IMG/VR virus record: IMGVR_UViG_3300002161_000019
Coordinates: 1 to 34,267 of that record
Origin: a virus
DNA length: 34,267 nucleotides
Strand: one strand, 5' to 3'
In this document: positions 10,439-30,652 of the stretch, piece after piece
Numbering within the stretch: the stretch's first letter is position 1
Layout: each line of letters starts with the position of its first letter
Position numbers and translations under genes: made by a program
The notes under the pieces: generated by a model
Told to the model about the DNA's origin: nothing
The model's database searches: none
What the model saw: only the letters and a program-made list of their open reading frames with translations

Positions 10439-10996
10439 TTAATCGTGGAAAAACTCATCTAAAGGTATATCATAAATGATGGGGTCAACAGAATGCAGGT
10501 TGAGTAGAAAAAGAACATAGGAAGCACAGGAAGAACCTCTTCCAACACCCCAAACTACTCCGCGCTCCTTGAAAACATCTAGAATGTAGATAACTGTCCT
10601 AAAGAAATCAGTCATTCCGCGAGTTTCAATCTCGTGCAGTTCATCTATAACCCGGGTAAATGCTGAGTCCCACTGCTGTTGGGTGTACCGTTGATATAGT
10701 TCTTCTGAGCGTTCATCAAGAACTTTTCCAACAACTTCTGACAGATTGAGGGTCTTATACTTCTCTGGTAAGTTCCAAGAAAAGTTTAGTTTGACAGGCT
10801 CTTCTTCAAAAATACGAATAGTATCTTCTTCTACAACGTTTGAATTAAAAGCCTGGATATCCTCATTGAGGTGGGTGACCCGCATCTGCGTAGGAGAAAC
10901 TCCATGAAGCAACGCATCTGCTACATCCTCAGGACAGATGATGCTTGTGCCGTCATATCTCAGCACCCGACCTTCTAGTTCTACAGAAAGTTGCAT
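10439..10996 (-). CDS. DnaE-like (family C polymerase) N-terminal half, GRGS segment
   Basis: The last 60 residues of this 185-aa protein match the segment of the DNA polymerase III alpha subunit just before its catalytic Asps: ETRGMTDFF, then VVWGVGRGSSCASYVLFLL (compare GxPVGPGRGSAAGSLVAY), VDPIIYDIPLDEFF (compare DPLxYxLLFERF). The family would continue into PDFDVDF; here the gene stops, and that part begins the separate gene at 4232..4816. No PHP domain is present. The ATG directly follows the stop of the previous gene (TAAATG) and has no clear Shine-Dalgarno. Its product most likely pairs with the other half. The biochemical role is unknown. Confidence 0.75.
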   Translation of the reverse strand: MQLSVELEGRVLRYDGTSIICPEDVADALLHGVSPTQMRVTHLNEDIQAFNSNVVEEDTIRIFEEEPVKLNFSWNLPEKYKTLNLSEVVGKVLDERSEELYQRYTQQQWDSAFTRVIDELHEIETRGMTDFFRTVIYILDVFKERGVVWGVGRGSSCASYVLFLLNLHSVDPIIYDIPLDEFFHD

Positions 10997-23420: not shown

Positions 23421-23443
23421 GTGACCTATTTATCTGTGGTCAC
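23421..23443 (-). promoter_or_regulatory. Late-like promoter GATAAATA within an inverted repeat
   Basis: GATAAATA (23434-23427, 7/8 to the T4 late consensus) lies in the 11-base loop between the arms GTGACC and GGTCAC. It precedes the endolysin ribosome binding site and overlaps the stop of the upstream gene. Confidence 0.45.
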
Positions 23444-23949
23444 CCCAAAATATCGCCTACCGTCTTCCCTCCGATCCAGCGGTGCAAATCATGTGGCCCG
23501 CACACAATTCCATAGAAAATCGACTTCCCATGAAACAATTCCACACCTGTTGGGTGGATCATGGCTGATGCTTTTGGTACTGCAGGATGAATACAGGAAG
23601 TTTTGGCAGTATAGCCAATGATAGTCGCTGTTGCAGTTGCTAACTTACTGTCATCAGGAGAAAATAAAAGAAGGTCGTGGTTAAATGCAGCAGAACTGGT
23701 GATAGGGATACTATCAATTGTATAGGTTTCTTTATCAACTGCCATCACATGCCAACTTGCTGGAATTTCAACTTCTAAATTTTGAATACGCAGTTTAAGT
23801 GTATGACCTGTCGTTTCCTCAAGGTACTGCATTTCCTCCAACTTAAAGTCCATCATATGACTGCTAAATGACCAAAAGTGGGAAACACCAATAGGAGCAG
23901 TAATGCTCTCTAGAATGTATGCGCGATTTACCTCAGATAATATTTGCAT
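23440..23949 (-). CDS. Hypothetical protein, 169 aa
   Basis: The protein starts MQILSEVNRAYILESITAPI and has a beta-rich body with a hydrophobic core (IPASWHVMAVDKETYTIDSI) and a Gly/His-rich end (YGIVCGPHDLHRWIGGK). No catalytic motif is recognised. Its ATG lies within the end of the preceding gene, a 17-base overlap, and has no good ribosome binding site, so coupling is likely. It lies between the uvsW region and the endolysin. The function is unknown. Confidence 0.6.
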   Translation of the reverse strand: MQILSEVNRAYILESITAPIGVSHFWSFSSHMMDFKLEEMQYLEETTGHTLKLRIQNLEVEIPASWHVMAVDKETYTIDSIPITSSAAFNHDLLLFSPDDSKLATATATIIGYTAKTSCIHPAVPKASAMIHPTGVELFHGKSIFYGIVCGPHDLHRWIGGKTVGDILG

Positions 23950-24373
23950 TTTTGATATACTTTTCGGTTAGTTCTGCCAAAGTTAGTCGTGCAAAGTTTC
24001 CACCTGCAAATCGACCACCATACTTCTTCCATTCTTCTATTATAGATTGATATACCTGCTCTGCGGATACAATTTCTTGTGGTTGAAGGTGAATAATTAT
24101 ATCAAGCGTATCATACACTGTAGATGGGAGAGATCTGCCATAGTATGCTAGAAGTTGGTGTTGCTGGTTGCGGTGAAGGATGGCATTTAACTTTTCTTCC
24201 TCTTCTTGTGTACAGATTACATGAGCACGAGCCATCATATTAATAGTGTCACCAGCCATAAAAGCACCAGACAATTGCTCTTCAAGATTTGAGCCGCTGA
24301 TTATACCAATTGACAGGAGTTGGTGCCTTACATGCTGAAGGTCGCCAACGCCTGCTTTTCTCTCAATTCTCAT
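23933..24373 (-). CDS. Hypothetical protein, 146 aa
   Basis: The protein starts MRIERKAGVGDLQHVRHQLL and is predicted helical, ending LAELTEKYIKNANII. No motif is recognised. Its ATG overlaps the stop of the uvsW C-terminal gene (ATGA), and AAGG lies seven bases before it, so it is translated from the same message as that fragment. Confidence 0.6.
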   Translation of the reverse strand: MRIERKAGVGDLQHVRHQLLSIGIISGSNLEEQLSGAFMAGDTINMMARAHVICTQEEEEKLNAILHRNQQHQLLAYYGRSLPSTVYDTLDIIIHLQPQEIVSAEQVYQSIIEEWKKYGGRFAGGNFARLTLAELTEKYIKNANII

Positions 24374-25770
24374 GCTGTTGCCTTAACTACCTTCAGCACC
24401 GGGTATTGGGCTGACTCGTAGTATTTTTTGCGCTCACGATAGTGCTTGCGTGACCACTTTAAACTTGAATGAATATCAACGCAATGCACTCTTTCCTTGT
24501 CATCTGCCTTGCGAAGACCACGACCGATAGATTGAATTGTACGGACAAATGATTTACCTGCATCAATCATCATAAGGTTGAATACACGGTCAATGCTGAT
24601 ACCTGTGCTTGCAATTCCAAATGTTGCAATGACGATTAGATTGTCGGTGTTTTCAAACATGTGGTACCATTCCGCACGGACATCATTCTCAGTGGCTCCA
24701 TACAGAAACACACTATCCTTGATAAGTTTCTGCAGCGCTCTTCCCTGCTTCACTGAATTTACCAGCACAAAGGTATTACCAAATTGATCTGCCTTTGCAA
24801 TGATAAGGTCAGCAATAAAGTCAAGTCTATCAGAATTCCTGCTGAGGAAAGTTTTTTCAGATGAATAATCTGGAAATTCTTCTGTTGCAGTTTCTTGAAT
24901 TTCAATCGGCTCAATTTCAAGTTGAGCAAGATAGCCCATCCTGATGAGGTCAGCGGCAGAAATTTCAAATAAGATTTCACCGATTGCACCCCGTAGTGAC
25001 ATCTGGTCAATCTTTGGCTTTGGGAAGGTGCCGGTAAATCCAAAGCGGTATGCACAGTTTTTACCGTGCTTGTTTATCAACTCTCCAATAGTTTTTGCCG
25101 AGGCACCGTGGGCTTCATCCACAATAATGCAGTGAAAGTCCTCTACAACAACTGGGTTATTCTGCAGTGCCTGCCAAGTTGCTACTACGGTATAGTGGTG
25201 AATGTCCTTCTTGTTTCCAGAATAAACACCAACATCTAGATTTCCAAGCGTCATGGTGCTAGCAGTCTGCTCAACTAGGTCGGATGAAGGCACAATAACC
25301 AAGGTGCGAAGTTCTTGCTTTGCAAGAATGTCAGCCACACCGGCAATCATCCACGTGTTATGATGAAGAAGCCCATTTGCATCGTAATATGAATGATGAT
25401 TGGCATAAATTGAAATATCGTAAAATTCATCTTCACCATCTGGAATAATATCAACTATCTTTGTTAATCCTGTTTTTGTAACAATTTCATCATTGACATT
25501 CAATGATGATGCCTTTATTACGCCATTTTTATTAAACACCAAATGACCAGCAGCACACCTCAACTTGCAATTTTCTGTGTGTAGAATAAGTGCTTTGTCA
25601 GTTTTTTTAATAGCAGCAACTGCTAATTCCCAGCCGGTGGGTGTTTCAAATTTAATTTGAAGATCAGAAATATCTACAGGAATATTGACTTCAAATCTGC
25701 GCCCCGTCGTTTCTCCAATGGCGTTGAAGAGTTTCGCAAATGTCGTCAAATAATTTGTGTCTCGGGTCAT
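24370..25770 (-). CDS. uvsW: UvsW helicase C-terminal part fused to a C-intein (fractured gene)
   Basis: The 466-aa product begins with a C-intein (about residues 1-138), then continues at T139 as helicase: TWMIAGVADIL after the P-loop, DEAH box IIVDEAHGA near 217, motif III GFTGTFPK and motif VI QSIGRGLRK. The C-intein shows a block B-like CAAGH, an ASSLNVNDEIV segment, block F FYDISIYANHHSYYDANG and block G HHN followed by Thr. Two in-frame stop codons (TAATAA) directly precede the ATG, so this is a true gene start and not a frameshift continuation. It overlaps the endonuclease gene by 80 bases. UvsW unwinds branched DNA and R-loops in recombination. Trans-splicing with 26583..27095 would give about 470 residues, close to T4 UvsW. 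Confidence 0.92.
   Translation of the reverse strand: MTRDTNYLTTFAKLFNAIGETTGRRFEVNIPVDISDLQIKFETPTGWELAVAAIKKTDKALILHTENCKLRCAAGHLVFNKNGVIKASSLNVNDEIVTKTGLTKIVDIIPDGEDEFYDISIYANHHSYYDANGLLHHNTWMIAGVADILAKQELRTLVIVPSSDLVEQTASTMTLGNLDVGVYSGNKKDIHHYTVVATWQALQNNPVVVEDFHCIIVDEAHGASAKTIGELINKHGKNCAYRFGFTGTFPKPKIDQMSLRGAIGEILFEISAADLIRMGYLAQLEIEPIEIQETATEEFPDYSSEKTFLSRNSDRLDFIADLIIAKADQFGNTFVLVNSVKQGRALQKLIKDSVFLYGATENDVRAEWYHMFENTDNLIVIATFGIASTGISIDRVFNLMMIDAGKSFVRTIQSIGRGLRKADDKERVHCVDIHSSLKWSRKHYRERKKYYESAQYPVLKVVKATA
25357..25770 (-). other. C-intein (split intein C-terminal fragment)
   Basis: Residues 1-138 of the C-terminal uvsW gene. It keeps block B, normally in the N-terminal half of inteins, as well as blocks F and G, ending His-Asn before the +1 Thr. 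The split therefore lies just after block A. The first 25-30 residues may not be part of the fold. Confidence 0.88.
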
Positions 25771-26611
25771 TTATTATCCATTCTGAATACAAACTTTCTA
25801 GGTTTTTACCGTCAATTGCGCATATACATTTCTTTGCCAAATTTTCTGATTTAGATAACCATTTTAAATTTCGTGGAAATGCAATAAACTTTATATTAAC
25901 ACGATTTAAAAACCCCGCGCTGATAGAATATTGATGATCTAGATGTCTTATTCCATTCTTACTTTCACTACTTTGATTTATTTGGTCTTCAAACATACGT
26001 GCTGAAATTTTTGTTAAAATTCCAACATAATGCTTGTATTGTATCTTACGATCGCGCTCCTTGATAAGTTCTTGTGGGATAGATGAAGTTTTTTGTAGTT
26101 CTTTTCTTGAGGAAACTGTTTCAGCCCATTTTTTGTTTCTTATTAACCATAATTTTATGCCTTCTTCTAATCCATTTCTCTCAACAAATTTTTCAATTCT
26201 TCCTGTTGATTGTCTCTGTTTTTGAAGAATTTTTGCTTTCTCAAAATCATTATCGGTTTTCTTAAGAAAATATTTTATGCCGGTGGTGTTTTTAGAAATA
26301 CTAGACTTTTGAAAAAGTGAATTACCTAACGCTTCTCCGTGTCTAGAAATTTTTGCTTTTAGCGAAGAAGTATCACAATTTTTAGGTTTCCATTTTTTTA
26401 TTTTATTCTGAACGTGCTCTGAATAAAGTTTAGTAGCGCGATCTTTAGTAAAACCAGAACAAAATCTATTCAAATCTATTGATGTTTTACTGCTTGATTT
26501 ACAGTTACACAAAACAACTTCTGTTAATATTTTACTCCTAGCGCGTTTAAATTCAGAACCGCAATGCAAGCAGCGGGGTGTATTAAGTACGTGACCTTTC
26601 CAAGTTTTCAA
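25691..26611 (-). CDS. Free-standing HNH-type homing endonuclease between the intein halves
   Basis: The 306-aa basic protein has a Cys pair motif near its N-terminus (C14, C17, C35, C37), which may bind zinc. A C-terminal HNH-like core is also present: RHLDHQYSISAGF (H223, D225, H226), then PRNLKWLSKSENLAKK (N248, N257, K260), like DHxxxIxxGF...NLxxLSxxEN. Such enzymes cut intein-free alleles and spread the element by repair. It is in a different frame from both uvsW pieces. The start is a TTG with AGGAG six bases upstream, and TATAAATA lies about 30 bases before it. It overlaps the N-part by 29 bases and the C-part by 80. The family seen here is HNH rather than Vsr-like. Confidence 0.82.
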   Translation of the reverse strand: MKTWKGHVLNTPRCLHCGSEFKRARSKILTEVVLCNCKSSSKTSIDLNRFCSGFTKDRATKLYSEHVQNKIKKWKPKNCDTSSLKAKISRHGEALGNSLFQKSSISKNTTGIKYFLKKTDNDFEKAKILQKQRQSTGRIEKFVERNGLEEGIKLWLIRNKKWAETVSSRKELQKTSSIPQELIKERDRKIQYKHYVGILTKISARMFEDQINQSSESKNGIRHLDHQYSISAGFLNRVNIKFIAFPRNLKWLSKSENLAKKCICAIDGKNLESLYSEWIINDPRHKLFDDICETLQRHWRNDGAQI

Positions 26612-27095
26612 AATATTCTCCTATAATTCCACCTACACGTATATTTATAGGAGTATTTCCATCAATGCATTTCCCACTACCAGTGGCTGCCAGAATGAAG
26701 CCAGAAGTTGCTTCAAGCGCAGCATTCACAGCATCAACTTGGTATGGGCGGAGAACAACACCTAGTTTGTGTTCAGGCTTGTCTTTAAACCAATTGGCGT
26801 GAATACGAGTTTGTACAATCGGCTGGGCTTTCCTATTATCAACAATTTCTAAGTCATATCCCCATTTATCAAGATACGGAGTCACTTCGTCCAATAGCCG
26901 AAAATAGATTTTGCCAGCCTTATCAAAAAAATGTACTTTACCATCCCAACGACCGAGCCGGTACAAGGGCATAAAATATGCTCCTTCCACCATTACTGCA
27001 AATTTTTCCTCCAGAACCTTATGATCAGCCGGTTCTAGCCCAGAAATCCTGCAAAACACCTCATCATCTACGGTTATGAAAACTTTTTTACTCAT
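26583..27095 (-). CDS. uvsW: UvsW helicase N-terminal part fused to an N-intein (fractured gene)
   Basis: The 170-aa product starts MSKKVFITVDDEVFCRISGL, the N-terminal domain of T4-like UvsW, with GRWDGKVHFFD near 48-58 and a RPYQVDAV Q-motif near 116. Residues 131-142 end in AATGSGK, the Walker A motif cut after the lysine. Residue 143 is Cys, the first residue of the N-intein (CIDGNTPINIRVGG), which runs 28 residues to the stop. The next residue after splicing is the Thr of the C-terminal gene, restoring GSGKT. The ATG overlaps the previous stop (ATGA). Without the other piece it lacks motifs II-VI and cannot be an active helicase. Confidence 0.92.
   Translation of the reverse strand: MSKKVFITVDDEVFCRISGLEPADHKVLEEKFAVMVEGAYFMPLYRLGRWDGKVHFFDKAGKIYFRLLDEVTPYLDKWGYDLEIVDNRKAQPIVQTRIHANWFKDKPEHKLGVVLRPYQVDAVNAALEATSGFILAATGSGKCIDGNTPINIRVGGIIGEYFENLERSRT
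26586..26669 (-). other. N-intein (28 residues at most)
   Basis: Only intein block A is present: Cys1, then IDGNTPINIR, then GEYFENLERSRT and a stop. This is far shorter than the roughly 100-residue N-inteins of DnaE-type split inteins. It resembles the atypically split inteins with very short N-fragments such as AceL-TerL. The sequence also holds the late promoter and ribosome binding site of the endonuclease gene. Confidence 0.88.
26642..26649 (-). promoter_or_regulatory. T4-type late promoter for the homing endonuclease
   Basis: An exact TATAAATA lies inside the N-intein coding sequence, about 31 bases upstream of the endonuclease TTG. T4 intron endonuclease genes likewise carry embedded late promoters, so separate late expression is likely. 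Confidence 0.65.
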
Positions 27096-27538
27096 TCTTG
27101 ACTAAATGAAAAATGGCGTTCTAGATTATTCTTCCTGATATAGGAGATAGGTGTGATGTTCAAATTTGCTGCAGTAACAGTAATCATAGTCATCAGAGTG
27201 CTAATCTTAAGTTGCTCAATTGCAGTAATACTATGTTCAGGGCTAAGCACTGCCTTAATCTTTGCCCCGTTGGTGTGTTCGTGAAAAGAGATTACAAAAT
27301 CGTCATTGACAAAATTTACCGTCATAGCAGGAAAACAATTTTTTGTCAAACTTACGCTGCTCTTTGAAATATTAATTGGCGAAGAAGCAGAAGTACTTCC
27401 AAAACTTCCACCAGATATAATTGATCCTGATGTTATAGACGGTGACATTGGTTGATTGGTAATCGAGTACGTATAGTTTAGTGTTCCTGAAGCATCAGCG
27501 GTCACACTAATACCACTATCATCGGTAGAATTTGACAT
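27092..27538 (-). CDS. Hypothetical protein, 148 aa
   Basis: The first half is Ser/Thr/Gly-rich (MSNSTDDSGISVTADASGTL and repeats of SISSGS type) and probably extended. The second half has a beta-rich VNDDFVISFHEHTNG segment and a hydrophobic helix (KISTLMTMITVTAANLNI). No family is recognised. AAGGA lies six bases before the ATG. It sits between uvsY and uvsW, overlapping the uvsW start by four bases, so it is co-translated with the recombination genes. Confidence 0.6.
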   Translation of the reverse strand: MSNSTDDSGISVTADASGTLNYTYSITNQPMSPSITSGSIISGGSFGSTSASSPINISKSSVSLTKNCFPAMTVNFVNDDFVISFHEHTNGAKIKAVLSPEHSITAIEQLKISTLMTMITVTAANLNITPISYIRKNNLERHFSFSQE

Positions 27539-27547
27539 ATATCTTCC

Positions 27548-28009
27548 TTATAAAATAATATCGTTGAGGGATGCTACACGCAATTTTACAATATTTGAAA
27601 GCATCCAGCCCATTTGTTTGAATGATTCAACAATTGATTCAAGTCGCTGCTGGTACAAACTTGCTTCTACGATAAGTTGATTATGCTCTATCATATCTTT
27701 TTCACCAGAGATAAGCACACTTGTTTCTCTAGCACCAAAAGCGCGCTGACCATTTAGGTAGTTTTTGGTCAGCCGTGCCTCAATTCTACTCTTGTAGTTT
27801 TCCAACCACTTCACAAGTTGCTTTGCTTCCTGTGCAAGTTGGTCATACCTCATCTGATGATGGGGCAGATTTCTAATGAGTATTTCTAGCCGTTCTCCAC
27901 CAAGTTCAAACAGTGGTTCTGCTTGTGTAATACTTTCTTCGTACCGTGCAAAGAACGAAACAAGTTCATCTGCTAATTTATTTTCATCAATCTGGAGAAG
28001 AACGGTCAT
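27548..28009 (-). CDS. uvsY: Recombination mediator UvsY-like
   Basis: The 153-aa protein is almost wholly helical. It has a Lys/Arg-rich middle (LVKWLENYKSRIEARLTKNY) and a later stretch LISGEKDMIEHNQLIVEASL that parallels the LSADKDVLKVDTSLQYW part of T4 UvsY (137 aa). UvsY helps load UvsX onto DNA covered by gp32. Position in a cluster with uvsX, gp32 and uvsW supports the call. AGGGG lies six bases before the ATG, which overlaps the previous stop (ATGA). Confidence 0.78.
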   Translation of the reverse strand: MTVLLQIDENKLADELVSFFARYEESITQAEPLFELGGERLEILIRNLPHHQMRYDQLAQEAKQLVKWLENYKSRIEARLTKNYLNGQRAFGARETSVLISGEKDMIEHNQLIVEASLYQQRLESIVESFKQMGWMLSNIVKLRVASLNDIIL

Positions 28010-28487: not shown

Positions 28488-29615
28488 TTATTCCTCAATT
28501 GGTTGCATCTTTCGGGTGCGTTTGCCCTTAGATGTGGTTAATTCATCCTGATCAACAATTTGACCAAGTTCTTCCTCAGTGGCATCTGACCCCCCACGCA
28601 CAAGCATAGGCACACACGCTGGGTGCTTTAGGAGTTTGAGAGCAATCTCTTCATCGAAGTCCTTTTCCTTGAAGGTAATTCGCTCATCTCCAACTTCTGC
28701 AACATACAGAAGTTTTTCTCCTGGCTGCGTTCCCTTTGCAGTCACACCCATTTCAACTAGCATCTCAAGAAGACCGCTTGTTGCCGCCATACCACGGTTA
28801 TAAGGAACTTCCAGTTCAACTTTGGTACCAAGTTTTGCGAAGCGAGACTTGTAGGTCTCAAATCGCATCCTTACGCCAGTTACTTCACCTTCTTCCTTCA
28901 ACTTCAACTTGGTAACGATACCAATAATTGAAGATGAGAACTTAGTTGAGTTAGTGATTGCCCAGGCACCATCACCCATCATGATATCTTGAGGATACAC
29001 GTGATCGGTAATTACCATCGAGATTGGAAGACGACCAATGTGACCTACAGCAAGTCGAAGCATTGCCTTCCGGCGCTTTGCTAAGATGCCTTGGTCAGCC
29101 TTAATGGTACCATCTCGATCATAGTTTTCCATCTCAGTGCTTGAACTTAGCATTGCTAGACTATCAAGCACGATGAGGGTCTTTTGCGCAGAAAGATTAT
29201 CCTTGCCAAATGCCTTGATATATCCGCTGAAGAACTCAGCAAGCACGCGGTTGACATCCTCAATGGTAGTAACTGACATATACGTCAGCGCCTCATCAGT
29301 GATATTAACACCAATCTTGCGAAGATAATCTACATCAATTGCGTGCTCGCTGTCTAGATAGAGCACGTGATATCCTTCACGCTGCGCCTGCAGCGCAATA
29401 TTTGAAGCAATGAAACTCTTACCAGAACCTGATGGTCCAGCAAATAGAGAAATCTTGCCCAGCGGAATTCCCTTTAGGAAATCACCGCTTAGTGCTCGAT
29501 TGAGCGCAAAATTGCCAGTAGATAGCCATTCTTCAGTGGTCTTGATGCCCACACCGACGGTATCGAGTTTAGCAATTTCCTTCTTGAATTTATCCAAAAA
29601 AGGTAATCCAGCCAT
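28488..29615 (-). CDS. uvsX: UvsX, RecA-like recombinase
   Basis: The 375-aa protein is a RecA/UvsX core: Walker A GPSGSGKS at residues 60-67, catalytic Glu in LYLDSEHAID, Walker B TLIVLDSLAML, and an RLPISMVITDHVY segment before the flexible loop 2 region. Length is close to T4 UvsX (391 aa). It forms filaments on single-stranded DNA and drives strand exchange and recombination-dependent replication with UvsY, UvsW and gp32, all encoded nearby. The tail is basic then acidic (KGKRTRKMQPIEE). AGGAG lies six bases before the ATG. No intron or intein interrupts it. Confidence 0.96.
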   Translation of the reverse strand: MAGLPFLDKFKKEIAKLDTVGVGIKTTEEWLSTGNFALNRALSGDFLKGIPLGKISLFAGPSGSGKSFIASNIALQAQREGYHVLYLDSEHAIDVDYLRKIGVNITDEALTYMSVTTIEDVNRVLAEFFSGYIKAFGKDNLSAQKTLIVLDSLAMLSSSTEMENYDRDGTIKADQGILAKRRKAMLRLAVGHIGRLPISMVITDHVYPQDIMMGDGAWAITNSTKFSSSIIGIVTKLKLKEEGEVTGVRMRFETYKSRFAKLGTKVELEVPYNRGMAATSGLLEMLVEMGVTAKGTQPGEKLLYVAEVGDERITFKEKDFDEEIALKLLKHPACVPMLVRGGSDATEEELGQIVDQDELTTSKGKRTRKMQPIEE

Positions 29616-29680: not shown

Positions 29681-30580
29681 TTACTCGGCAGTCGCAGCAG
29701 CCTTCTGCTGTTGTCGAAGCCGAAGTTGTTCAACTACACTCAACTTCTTACCTTCTGCAGGAGCAGATGGAGCGGGAGCCGGTGCAGGAGCCTCATCAGT
29801 GCTGGTTGAAAGTGCCTTGGCAACCTTTGATACTGCAGGCTTGGCAGGTGCAGCATCTTCAGCATCTTCACCATTTGGTAGTGAAGAGCCAGTCTGATCA
29901 GCGATCAGCATCGCTTCAAGTTGCTCTCGCGAAACCTTAGAAGTGCGATATGCCTTCAGGTCAAATAGTTCGATTGCCTCAAGTACGTCGTCAGCAACAT
30001 CAGTTTGCTTAGGAGAGAAACTAGAGGTACCATAGTCAGCATACTGACCAGATTGGGTCTTCTTGATACGGAAGTTATACCCACCCTTTAGTTCGTAAGG
30101 AGGTTCCTCAAGATCACCGCTTTGGAAGGCTGCTTGAATTTGCTTGAAGATCTTTGGTCCAAACTCGATCAACTTAACAAGTTGCTCTGTGTCGTGCTCG
30201 ACAGGGGTCTCAAGAACTAGCACTTGACCAATGTAGCCCTTCTTACGGTAGTACTTCTTACCGAGTTCAGGGTTGTGCTCAGGATCCTTTTCATCGTAGT
30301 ACTTAGAGGACAGGGCGCAGATTGGGCAGTCCTCGCCGTGCATCTTCAGGCAGGCAACCTTCTCACGCTTACCATTTACAACAAGATCGTGAGTTAGGTT
30401 TTCCACGAGGAAACCCATCGGATTATCTTCATCTAGGTCGGGTAGGAAGCGGACAACAGAAACGCTGTCTGCGGGTGCCTTCCAAAAATTGAAAAACTTC
30501 TTCCAATTTTGGTCACCACCAGTGCCGGTGGTCTTTTGGGCGAATGAGGCGGCTAGGTCAGCCAGAGTACGTTTTGCCAT
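29681..30580 (-). CDS. 32: Single-stranded DNA-binding protein gp32
   Basis: The 299-aa protein starts MAKRTLADLAASFAQKTTG. It has the gp32 zinc-binding subdomain ACLKMHGEDCPICA (Cys, His and a CPIC pair) and an OB-type core with KYYRKKGYIGQVLVLE and aromatic DNA-binding residues. An extended Ala/Pro linker (EAPAPAPAPSAPAEG) leads to a Gln/Arg-rich C-terminal helix. T4 gp32 ends in an acidic tail; this one ends ATAE and is not strongly acidic at its tip. The frame extends upstream, but AAGGA fixes the ATG at 30580. It coats single-stranded DNA and coordinates replication and recombination proteins. Confidence 0.95.
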   Translation of the reverse strand: MAKRTLADLAASFAQKTTGTGGDQNWKKFFNFWKAPADSVSVVRFLPDLDEDNPMGFLVENLTHDLVVNGKREKVACLKMHGEDCPICALSSKYYDEKDPEHNPELGKKYYRKKGYIGQVLVLETPVEHDTEQLVKLIEFGPKIFKQIQAAFQSGDLEEPPYELKGGYNFRIKKTQSGQYADYGTSSFSPKQTDVADDVLEAIELFDLKAYRTSKVSREQLEAMLIADQTGSSLPNGEDAEDAAPAKPAVSKVAKALSTSTDEAPAPAPAPSAPAEGKKLSVVEQLRLRQQQKAAATAE

Positions 30581-30632
30581 TTTATAAATTCCTTCAAAGT
30601 TAGAATAAACAAGATTGATTTTGTATAAACAG

Positions 30633-30648
30633 TGTTGATTGCTCAACA
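30633..30648 (-). promoter_or_regulatory. Hairpin with GCAA tetraloop in the gp32 leader
   Basis: TGTTGA-GCAA-TCAACA forms a six-pair stem with a GNRA loop, 53 bases ahead of the gp32 ATG and followed by an AU-rich unstructured stretch. T4 gp32 represses its own mRNA through a leader pseudoknot and AU-rich region, so this may be the nucleation site here. Confidence 0.45.
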
Positions 30649-30652
30649 ATTT

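What the first reader, a model, noticed from the sequence alone, without database searches (positions are those of the whole stretch)
24370..27095. Fractured uvsW joined by an atypically split intein with a homing endonuclease gene in between
Seen: the P-loop GSGKT of UvsW is cut between K and T. The upstream gene ends with Cys1 plus 27 intein residues. The downstream gene starts with intein blocks B, F and G ending His-Asn-Thr. A separate HNH endonuclease lies between, and all three genes are in different frames. Known: fractured phage-like genes with split inteins and intervening endonuclease genes have been described from environmental sequences, and AceL-TerL shows a very short N-intein. 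Inferred: UvsW forms by trans-splicing, and the whole unit is a mobile element targeting a highly conserved P-loop codon pair. The N-fragment (28 residues or fewer) with block B on the C-side makes it an unusual natural split.
Basis: partly seen in the sequence, partly recalled or inferred. Interest (0 to 1): 0.92.

Follow-up and report, generated by a model that had tools for sequence, protein, structure and literature searches.

The report
Phage helicase gene split by intein
In this phage the gene for the DNA-repair helicase UvsW is cut in two exactly at its ATP-binding motif by a mobile element: the two protein halves carry the two parts of a self-splicing protein (a split intein) that should rejoin them, and a DNA-cutting gene that probably spreads the element sits between; the kind of arrangement is known, but this target gene and the make-up of the cutting enzyme seem to be new.

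Summary
On the minus strand uvsW is interrupted between the Lys and Thr codons of its Walker A motif (GSGK|T) by 1,313 bp holding a 28-aa N-intein, a homing-endonuclease gene and a 138-aa C-intein, in three frames. The joined exteins give a 470-aa UvsW; syntenic relatives have the uninterrupted site. The insert is an AT-rich island with edges at the splice junctions. Profile, structure and residue tests support an atypically split class 1 intein near VidaL, Cat and gp41-1; no intron was found. A second contig (L199) has the same fracture at the same codon, which excludes an assembly artefact. Its endonuclease shares the N-terminal part with the window's but ends in an EDxHD-type nuclease where the window's ends in HNH: apparently a catalytic-domain exchange at one target. 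Atypical splits are not rare in phages: 24 of 46 related intein loci are clearly split, with N-inteins of 27-58 aa. A fractured gene with split intein and intervening endonuclease gene is a known kind; I found no report of uvsW as host. Other phages carry a different split intein in the uvsW DEAH box. Splicing and homing are inferred, not shown.

The parts
26670..27095 (-). UvsW N-extein (142 aa, ends ...ILAATGSGK)
   Evidence: Pfam UvsW_N E=5e-8, PHROG 16259 E=6e-19; 76% identical to intact UvsW of L005
26586..26669 (-). N-intein, 28 aa, Cys1 codon 26669-26667; stop codon 26583-26585
   Evidence: sequence; N-intein profile rank 1 of 20,001
26618..26622 (-). AGGAG ribosome-binding site of the endonuclease gene, inside the N-intein codons, 6 bases before TTG
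   Evidence: sequence; function inferred
25691..26611 (-). Homing-endonuclease gene, 306 aa; overlaps the N-gene by 29 bases and the C-gene by 80 bases
   Evidence: ORF; homologues L199, Cr30, L092
26297..26578 (-). Endonuclease residues 12-105: zinc-ribbon-like N-terminal region found otherwise only in the endonuclease of the other uvsW Walker A fracture (L199)
   Evidence: blastp E=8e-13 to L199, best of 11 other such endonucleases E=0.1; role in DNA recognition inferred
26057..26290 (-). Endonuclease residues 108-185: module shared with EDxHD-type endonucleases of other fractured genes (consensus about IEYWLKKTD..RQSTFSLEKCIEKYGEEEG)
25766..25951 (-). HNH nuclease domain (residues 221-282, HLDHQYSISAGF...NLKWLSKSENLAKK)
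   Evidence: HMM of five HNH-type phage endonucleases, E=2e-15
25357..25770 (-). C-intein, 138 aa: N-terminal helix (residues 6-22), block B His76, block F Asp118, His137, Asn138
   Evidence: HMM E=7.7e-19; AlphaFold2 pLDDT 82 and Foldseek hits all inteins or HINT domains; PDB profile search VidaL E=1.8e-13
24373..25356 (-). UvsW C-extein (328 aa, begins with Thr+1; DEAH box and helicase motifs); stop 24370-24372
   Evidence: PHROG 16 E=6e-64, Pfam ResIII and Helicase_C; 77% identical to L005
25357..26669 (-). Whole insert, 1,313 bp, between the AAA (Lys) and ACG (Thr) codons; GC about 32% against 43-44% in the exteins
   Evidence: empty site in L005, L006, L007, L011

Best explanation
It is a fractured uvsW gene carrying an atypically split class 1 intein with a homing-endonuclease gene between the intein halves. 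The halves UvsW-IntN and IntC-UvsW are made as two proteins. IntN (28 aa) docks into the IntC HINT domain; Cys1, block B His, block F Asp, the penultimate His, the last Asn and Thr+1 carry out trans-splicing, giving a seamless 470-aa UvsW with its Walker A motif restored (shown: anatomy, homology, predicted fold, residues; inferred: the reaction). The endonuclease recognises the conserved Walker A codons of intein-free uvsW in a co-infecting phage, cuts there, and repair from the fractured copy moves the whole 1,313-bp unit (inferred). Its nuclease end differs in type (HNH instead of EDxHD) from that of a homologous endonuclease at the same site, while the N-terminal part is shared (shown by comparison with L199; exchange and its direction inferred).
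For: Gapless join of the exteins on intact UvsW; uninterrupted site in syntenic relatives and in 71 of 78 checked UvsW loci; intein profiles for both halves; PDB profile hits VidaL 1.8e-13, gp41-1 2.7e-11, Cat 6.7e-10; predicted fold matches inteins and HINT-type domains, VidaL rmsd 3.0 over 104 columns; composition island bounded by the splice junctions; second contig L199 with the same fracture, 36% identical C-intein; patchy occurrence on a UvsW tree, window and L199 in separate clades among intein-free sequences; no Rfam intron in either locus; both exteins conserved (pN 0.17-0.30 against pS 0.77-0.93 for window pairs).
Against: No splicing or homing was observed. The block B Thr is Ala here (CAAGH), though the same change stands in relatives including VidaL. 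Extein conservation says little about the time since insertion, because synonymous sites are saturated. The C-gene has only a weak ribosome-binding site. The fold is of the C-intein alone; the N+C complex could not be modelled.
Confidence: 0.9

Rival explanations
1. The interruption is an RNA intron (group I or II) with an HNH gene, so that the join occurs at RNA level.
For: HNH endonucleases are often intron-encoded; IBB_35 TerL was described with both an intein and an intron (PMC3322345).
Against: No Rfam match on 25300-27100 except a sub-threshold snoRNA-like hit, none in L199; the endonuclease ORF fills nearly the whole space between N-intein and C-intein, leaving no room for a ribozyme; the intein halves carry their own stop and start codons.
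Confidence: 0.03
2. The insert is a dead remnant: the gene halves are translated but not spliced, and UvsW is lost or replaced.
For: No functional data; block B Thr is Ala; weak ribosome-binding site before the C-gene.
Against: All three ORFs are open, all other catalytic residues are in place, the extein motifs are intact and as conserved as in intein-free relatives, and L199 keeps the same split at 36% intein identity.
Confidence: 0.06
3. UvsW works as two unjoined subunits, like the genes-in-pieces ribonucleotide reductase split by an endonuclease gene, with the intein pieces as mere tails.
For: Precedent for an endonuclease-split gene that works in pieces (Friedrich et al. 2007, cited in PMC10448857).
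Against: The break lies inside the Walker A motif between Lys and Thr, where two chains could hardly form an ATP site; intact splice residues on both sides.
Confidence: 0.03
4. Assembly chimera or sequencing error broke a normal uvsW.
For: The window is a metagenomic contig and reads cannot be inspected.
Against: L199, from another dataset, has the same architecture at the same codon; insert edges coincide with exact splice junctions.
Confidence: 0.01

Closest known systems
Fractured genes with split inteins and intervening homing endonucleases (Dassa et al. 2009, NAR 37:2560; known to me and cited in papers here, not readable in this library)
   Same: Gene cut at a conserved site, split-intein halves on both sides, free endonuclease gene between
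   Different: Host gene uvsW; short N-intein; HNH nuclease end on an EDxHD-type N-terminal part
Atypically split inteins AceL-TerL (25 aa IntN), GOS-TerL (37 aa), PolB16 OarG (15 aa), VidaL
   Same: Very short IntN, block B on the IntC, phage or metagenome origin (PMC11766414, PMC10189870); VidaL is among the closest solved structures
   Different: Other host genes; about 23% identity to VidaL over the C-intein; N-terminal helix of about 22 residues on the C-intein
Pseudomonas phage MIJ3 PolB split intein with HNH gene (PMC6892783)
   Same: Phage fractured gene, HNH endonuclease between the halves
   Different: PolB host, Ser1 intein, blocks A to N4 on the N-side, so a conventional split
Contig L199 (IMGVR_UViG_3300046485_000154), fractured uvsW
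   Same: Same gene, same codon pair, 29-aa N-intein, homologous C-intein (36%) and endonuclease N-terminal part
   Different: EDxHD-type nuclease end; Ser+1; separate UvsW clade
T4 SegE
   Same: A homing endonuclease that targets uvsW (PMC2988022)
   Different: Free-standing GIY-YIG gene beside uvsW, no intein

Membership tests
Class 1 split intein (HINT) | HINT fold of the intein | tested here: met
   C-intein model pLDDT 82; top 50 Foldseek hits are inteins or intein-like HINT domains; complex with IntN not modelled
Class 1 split intein (HINT) | Nucleophile at position 1, His in block B, penultimate His, last Asn, Cys/Ser/Thr at +1 | tested here: met
   Cys1, His76 of IntC, His137, Asn138, Thr+1
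Class 1 split intein (HINT) | Block B Thr three residues before His (usual, not universal) | tested here: not met
   Ala at that place, as in the related phage inteins and VidaL; a feature of the clade, not a loss in this copy
Class 1 split intein (HINT) | Trans-splicing activity | not testable with these tools
   needs expression
Atypically split intein | IntN far shorter than about 100 aa, block B on IntC | tested here: met
   28 aa and 138 aa
Fractured gene with intervening homing endonuclease | Two host-gene parts with intein halves and a free endonuclease gene between, empty site in relatives | tested here: met
HNH homing endonuclease | HNH nuclease motif | tested here: met
   HMM E=2e-15; no Pfam or NCBIfam HNH hit
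HNH homing endonuclease | Site-specific cleavage of the empty site | not testable with these tools
   needs assay
EDxHD (Vsr-like) homing endonuclease | EDxHD nuclease domain | tested here: not met
   C-terminal end matches HNH, not the nuclease end of L199, L092, Cr30, though the first ~185 residues are shared with that group
Group I or II intron | Ribozyme core | tested here: not met
   No Rfam match
UvsW helicase | UvsW N-domain plus SF2 helicase motifs in one colinear protein after joining | tested here: met

The most novel reading that the evidence does not exclude
The uvsW element shows that intein-fracturing endonucleases are modular: at one target (uvsW Walker A) the catalytic domain has been exchanged between EDxHD and HNH types while the target-reading part and the split intein were kept, and uvsW is a recurrent, previously unreported host with two separate split-intein sites (Walker A and DEAH box).
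Probability: 0.6. Interest if true: 0.6.

Novelty: new member of a known kind. Interest (0 to 1): 0.5.

Why it matters
It adds uvsW, a replication and repair helicase, to the phage genes invaded at the ATP-binding loop, at the very codon pair where two unjoined chains could hardly work. The window/L199 pair is a natural experiment on how homing endonucleases change their cutting domain without changing their target. A Cys1 intein with a 28-aa N-half is also a candidate tool for peptide ligation. The survey here suggests that atypical splits are frequent in phage genomes and mostly unannotated.

Tried and rejected
Single-sequence scans of viral contigs with the C-intein and the endonuclease found nothing; a two-sequence intein scan found nothing; a seven-sequence intein alignment had no usable stretch. 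Pfam and NCBIfam do not recognise the intein halves above cut-off. The first N-intein test with a small contiguous-intein profile was weak (4 of 5000 shuffles scored higher); a dedicated N-intein profile settled it. AlphaFold2 of the endonuclease failed (pLDDT 39) and is not used. RNA intron, assembly artefact, unjoined subunits and dead remnant were considered and judged unlikely (see rivals). I first took the N-terminal ~22 residues of the C-intein for an accident of the overlap with the endonuclease gene; L199 shares part of them (LTTxxxLFxAIxE), so they seem to belong to the intein. Synonymous sites were saturated, so selection since insertion could not be timed. Genome contigs held no relative of the C-extein. 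Dassa et al. 2009 and the VidaL paper are not in the library, so whether uvsW was listed there could not be checked.

Full report
Observation. The window is a whole 34,267-base virus record, probably a fragment of a T4-like phage. On its minus strand lie gp32 (29681-30649), uvsX (28488-29615), uvsY (27548-28009) and then the uvsW region. uvsW is in two pieces. The N-gene (27095-26583) ends GSGK followed by a 28-residue tail that begins with Cys; the C-gene (25770-24370) begins with 138 residues ending HHN and goes on with TWMIAG. Between them, overlapping the N-gene by 29 and the C-gene by 80 bases, is a 306-codon ORF with AGGAG six bases before its TTG start. The three starts are in three frames. 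The insert runs from 26669 to 25357, 1,313 bp, exactly between the Lys and Thr codons.

UvsW. N- and C-pieces match UvsW models, meeting without gap at profile position 146 of PHROG 16259. The joined 470-aa protein aligns end to end with intact phage UvsW. In IMG/VR contigs with the same gene order (gp32, uvsX, uvsY, uvsW, and the gene like window 23440-23949) uvsW is continuous, the two window pieces abutting at residue 142 and 139 (codons shown). Of 78 UvsW loci checked, 71 have the uninterrupted P-loop directly before the C-extein.

Intein. A profile of five contiguous phage inteins, without the window, finds the C-piece at E=7.7e-19 while the next ORF scores 0.5. A profile of 30 other N-inteins puts the 28-aa piece first among 20,001 sequences with shuffles and first against 992 decoys. 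With 34 relatives the C-piece profile finds VidaL, gp41-1, Cat and NrdJ-1 in the PDB, the list being inteins and intein-like domains. The AlphaFold2 model of the C-piece (pLDDT 82) matches gp41-1 and VidaL best, and the top 50 hits are inteins or intein-like HINT domains. Cys1, block B His, block F Asp, penultimate His, last Asn and Thr+1 are present; the block B Thr is Ala as in the relatives.

Mobility. N-intein, endonuclease gene and C-intein (outside the gene overlap) are 31-33% GC, the exteins 43-44%, and the most AT-rich 900-base window of the contig lies in the insert. On a tree of 41 UvsW C-exteins the window sits in a supported clade of nine whose other members lack the intein, and L199 sits in another clade. 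This patchiness fits horizontal movement; it does not prove homing.

A second case. Scanning with the C-extein alone found contig L199: UvsW N-part ending GSGK, 29-aa N-intein CVFGDTLIKIKVSNELAEKIREIENANIS, endonuclease, and a C-gene whose intein ends YYDANGFLHHN before Ser+1. The C-inteins are 36% identical, including part of the N-terminal helix. This excludes an assembly artefact. The two endonucleases align over window residues 12-187 (E=8e-23). The first 105 residues of the window protein resemble only L199 among 12 other such endonucleases, while residues 108-185 are shared by most. The rest differs: L199 ends like the EDxHD enzymes (IIEFYGDYWHANP), the window like HNH enzymes (E=2e-15). 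I read this as exchange of the catalytic domain with the target-reading part kept; that the N-terminal region reads the target is inferred from its restriction to the two uvsW elements.

How common. A scan with a TerL intein alignment gave 47 loci. Of 46 loci examined (45 of these plus L094; some are near-duplicates) 24 are clearly split with N-inteins of 27-58 aa, five contiguous, 17 undecided. Atypical splits also occur in named phages: uvsX of MIJ3 and relatives with a 17-aa N-intein, and phoH in LR756500. MIJ3 PolB with an HNH gene is published (PMC6892783). The window is thus a new member of a known kind. A full-text search for uvsW with intein returned seven papers; in the five I opened none reports an intein in uvsW; two were not opened, and the library lacks most subscription papers.

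Limits. Splicing and cleavage are not shown; the endonuclease fold failed; the N+C complex was not modelled; the founding papers could not be read. That phage homing endonucleases of different catalytic families share DNA-binding modules is known to me from general knowledge (see also PMC3943268, on modular DNA-binding regions), so catalytic-domain exchange as such is not new; at a split-intein site it may be.

Noticed in passing
L212, L214-L216, L220 (loci): uvsW of other phages is fractured at a different site, the DEAH box (WDE|CHG), by a conventional split intein (long N-intein, short C-intein); L215 and L220 have another endonuclease-like ORF between. L214-L216 look near-identical.
   Followed up: partly
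L091:1709-4715 (Pseudomonas phage MIJ3 and relatives): uvsX is fractured by an atypically split intein with a 17-aa N-intein (CLPETAKVKIRLSKKQS) and an EDxHD-like endonuclease gene; the records annotate only RecA or hypothetical proteins.
   Followed up: partly
L086:1096-4370 (LR756500, uncultured phage): A phoH-like gene is fractured by an atypically split intein with an endonuclease gene between.
   Followed up: partly
L097:225-4218 (Klebsiella phage KP13-7): nrdA is fractured twice, by two conventional split inteins, with a GIY-YIG-like and an HNH-type endonuclease gene in the gaps.
   Followed up: partly
L092:4301-6520 (same region in L100): A TerL intein stays one open frame across about 300 codons that are the out-of-frame reading of an EDxHD-like endonuclease gene: endonuclease gene overprinted inside a contiguous intein.
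   Followed up: partly
L094:6747-7196 and L087:3282-3734: TerL C-inteins end SLN or NLN, without the usual penultimate His.
   Followed up: no
L137, L139, L141-L144: Further atypically split inteins in the Walker A motif of other P-loop proteins (VGKC, TGKC junctions), not identified further.
   Followed up: no
window 23933-24373 (-): A 146-aa gene of unknown function between uvsW and its usual neighbour, without a PHROG match and without a match in the syntenic relatives.
   Followed up: partly
window 10439-10996 (-): A 185-aa gene matching only a small part of DNA polymerase III alpha (PHROG 11127 over its whole length).
   Followed up: no
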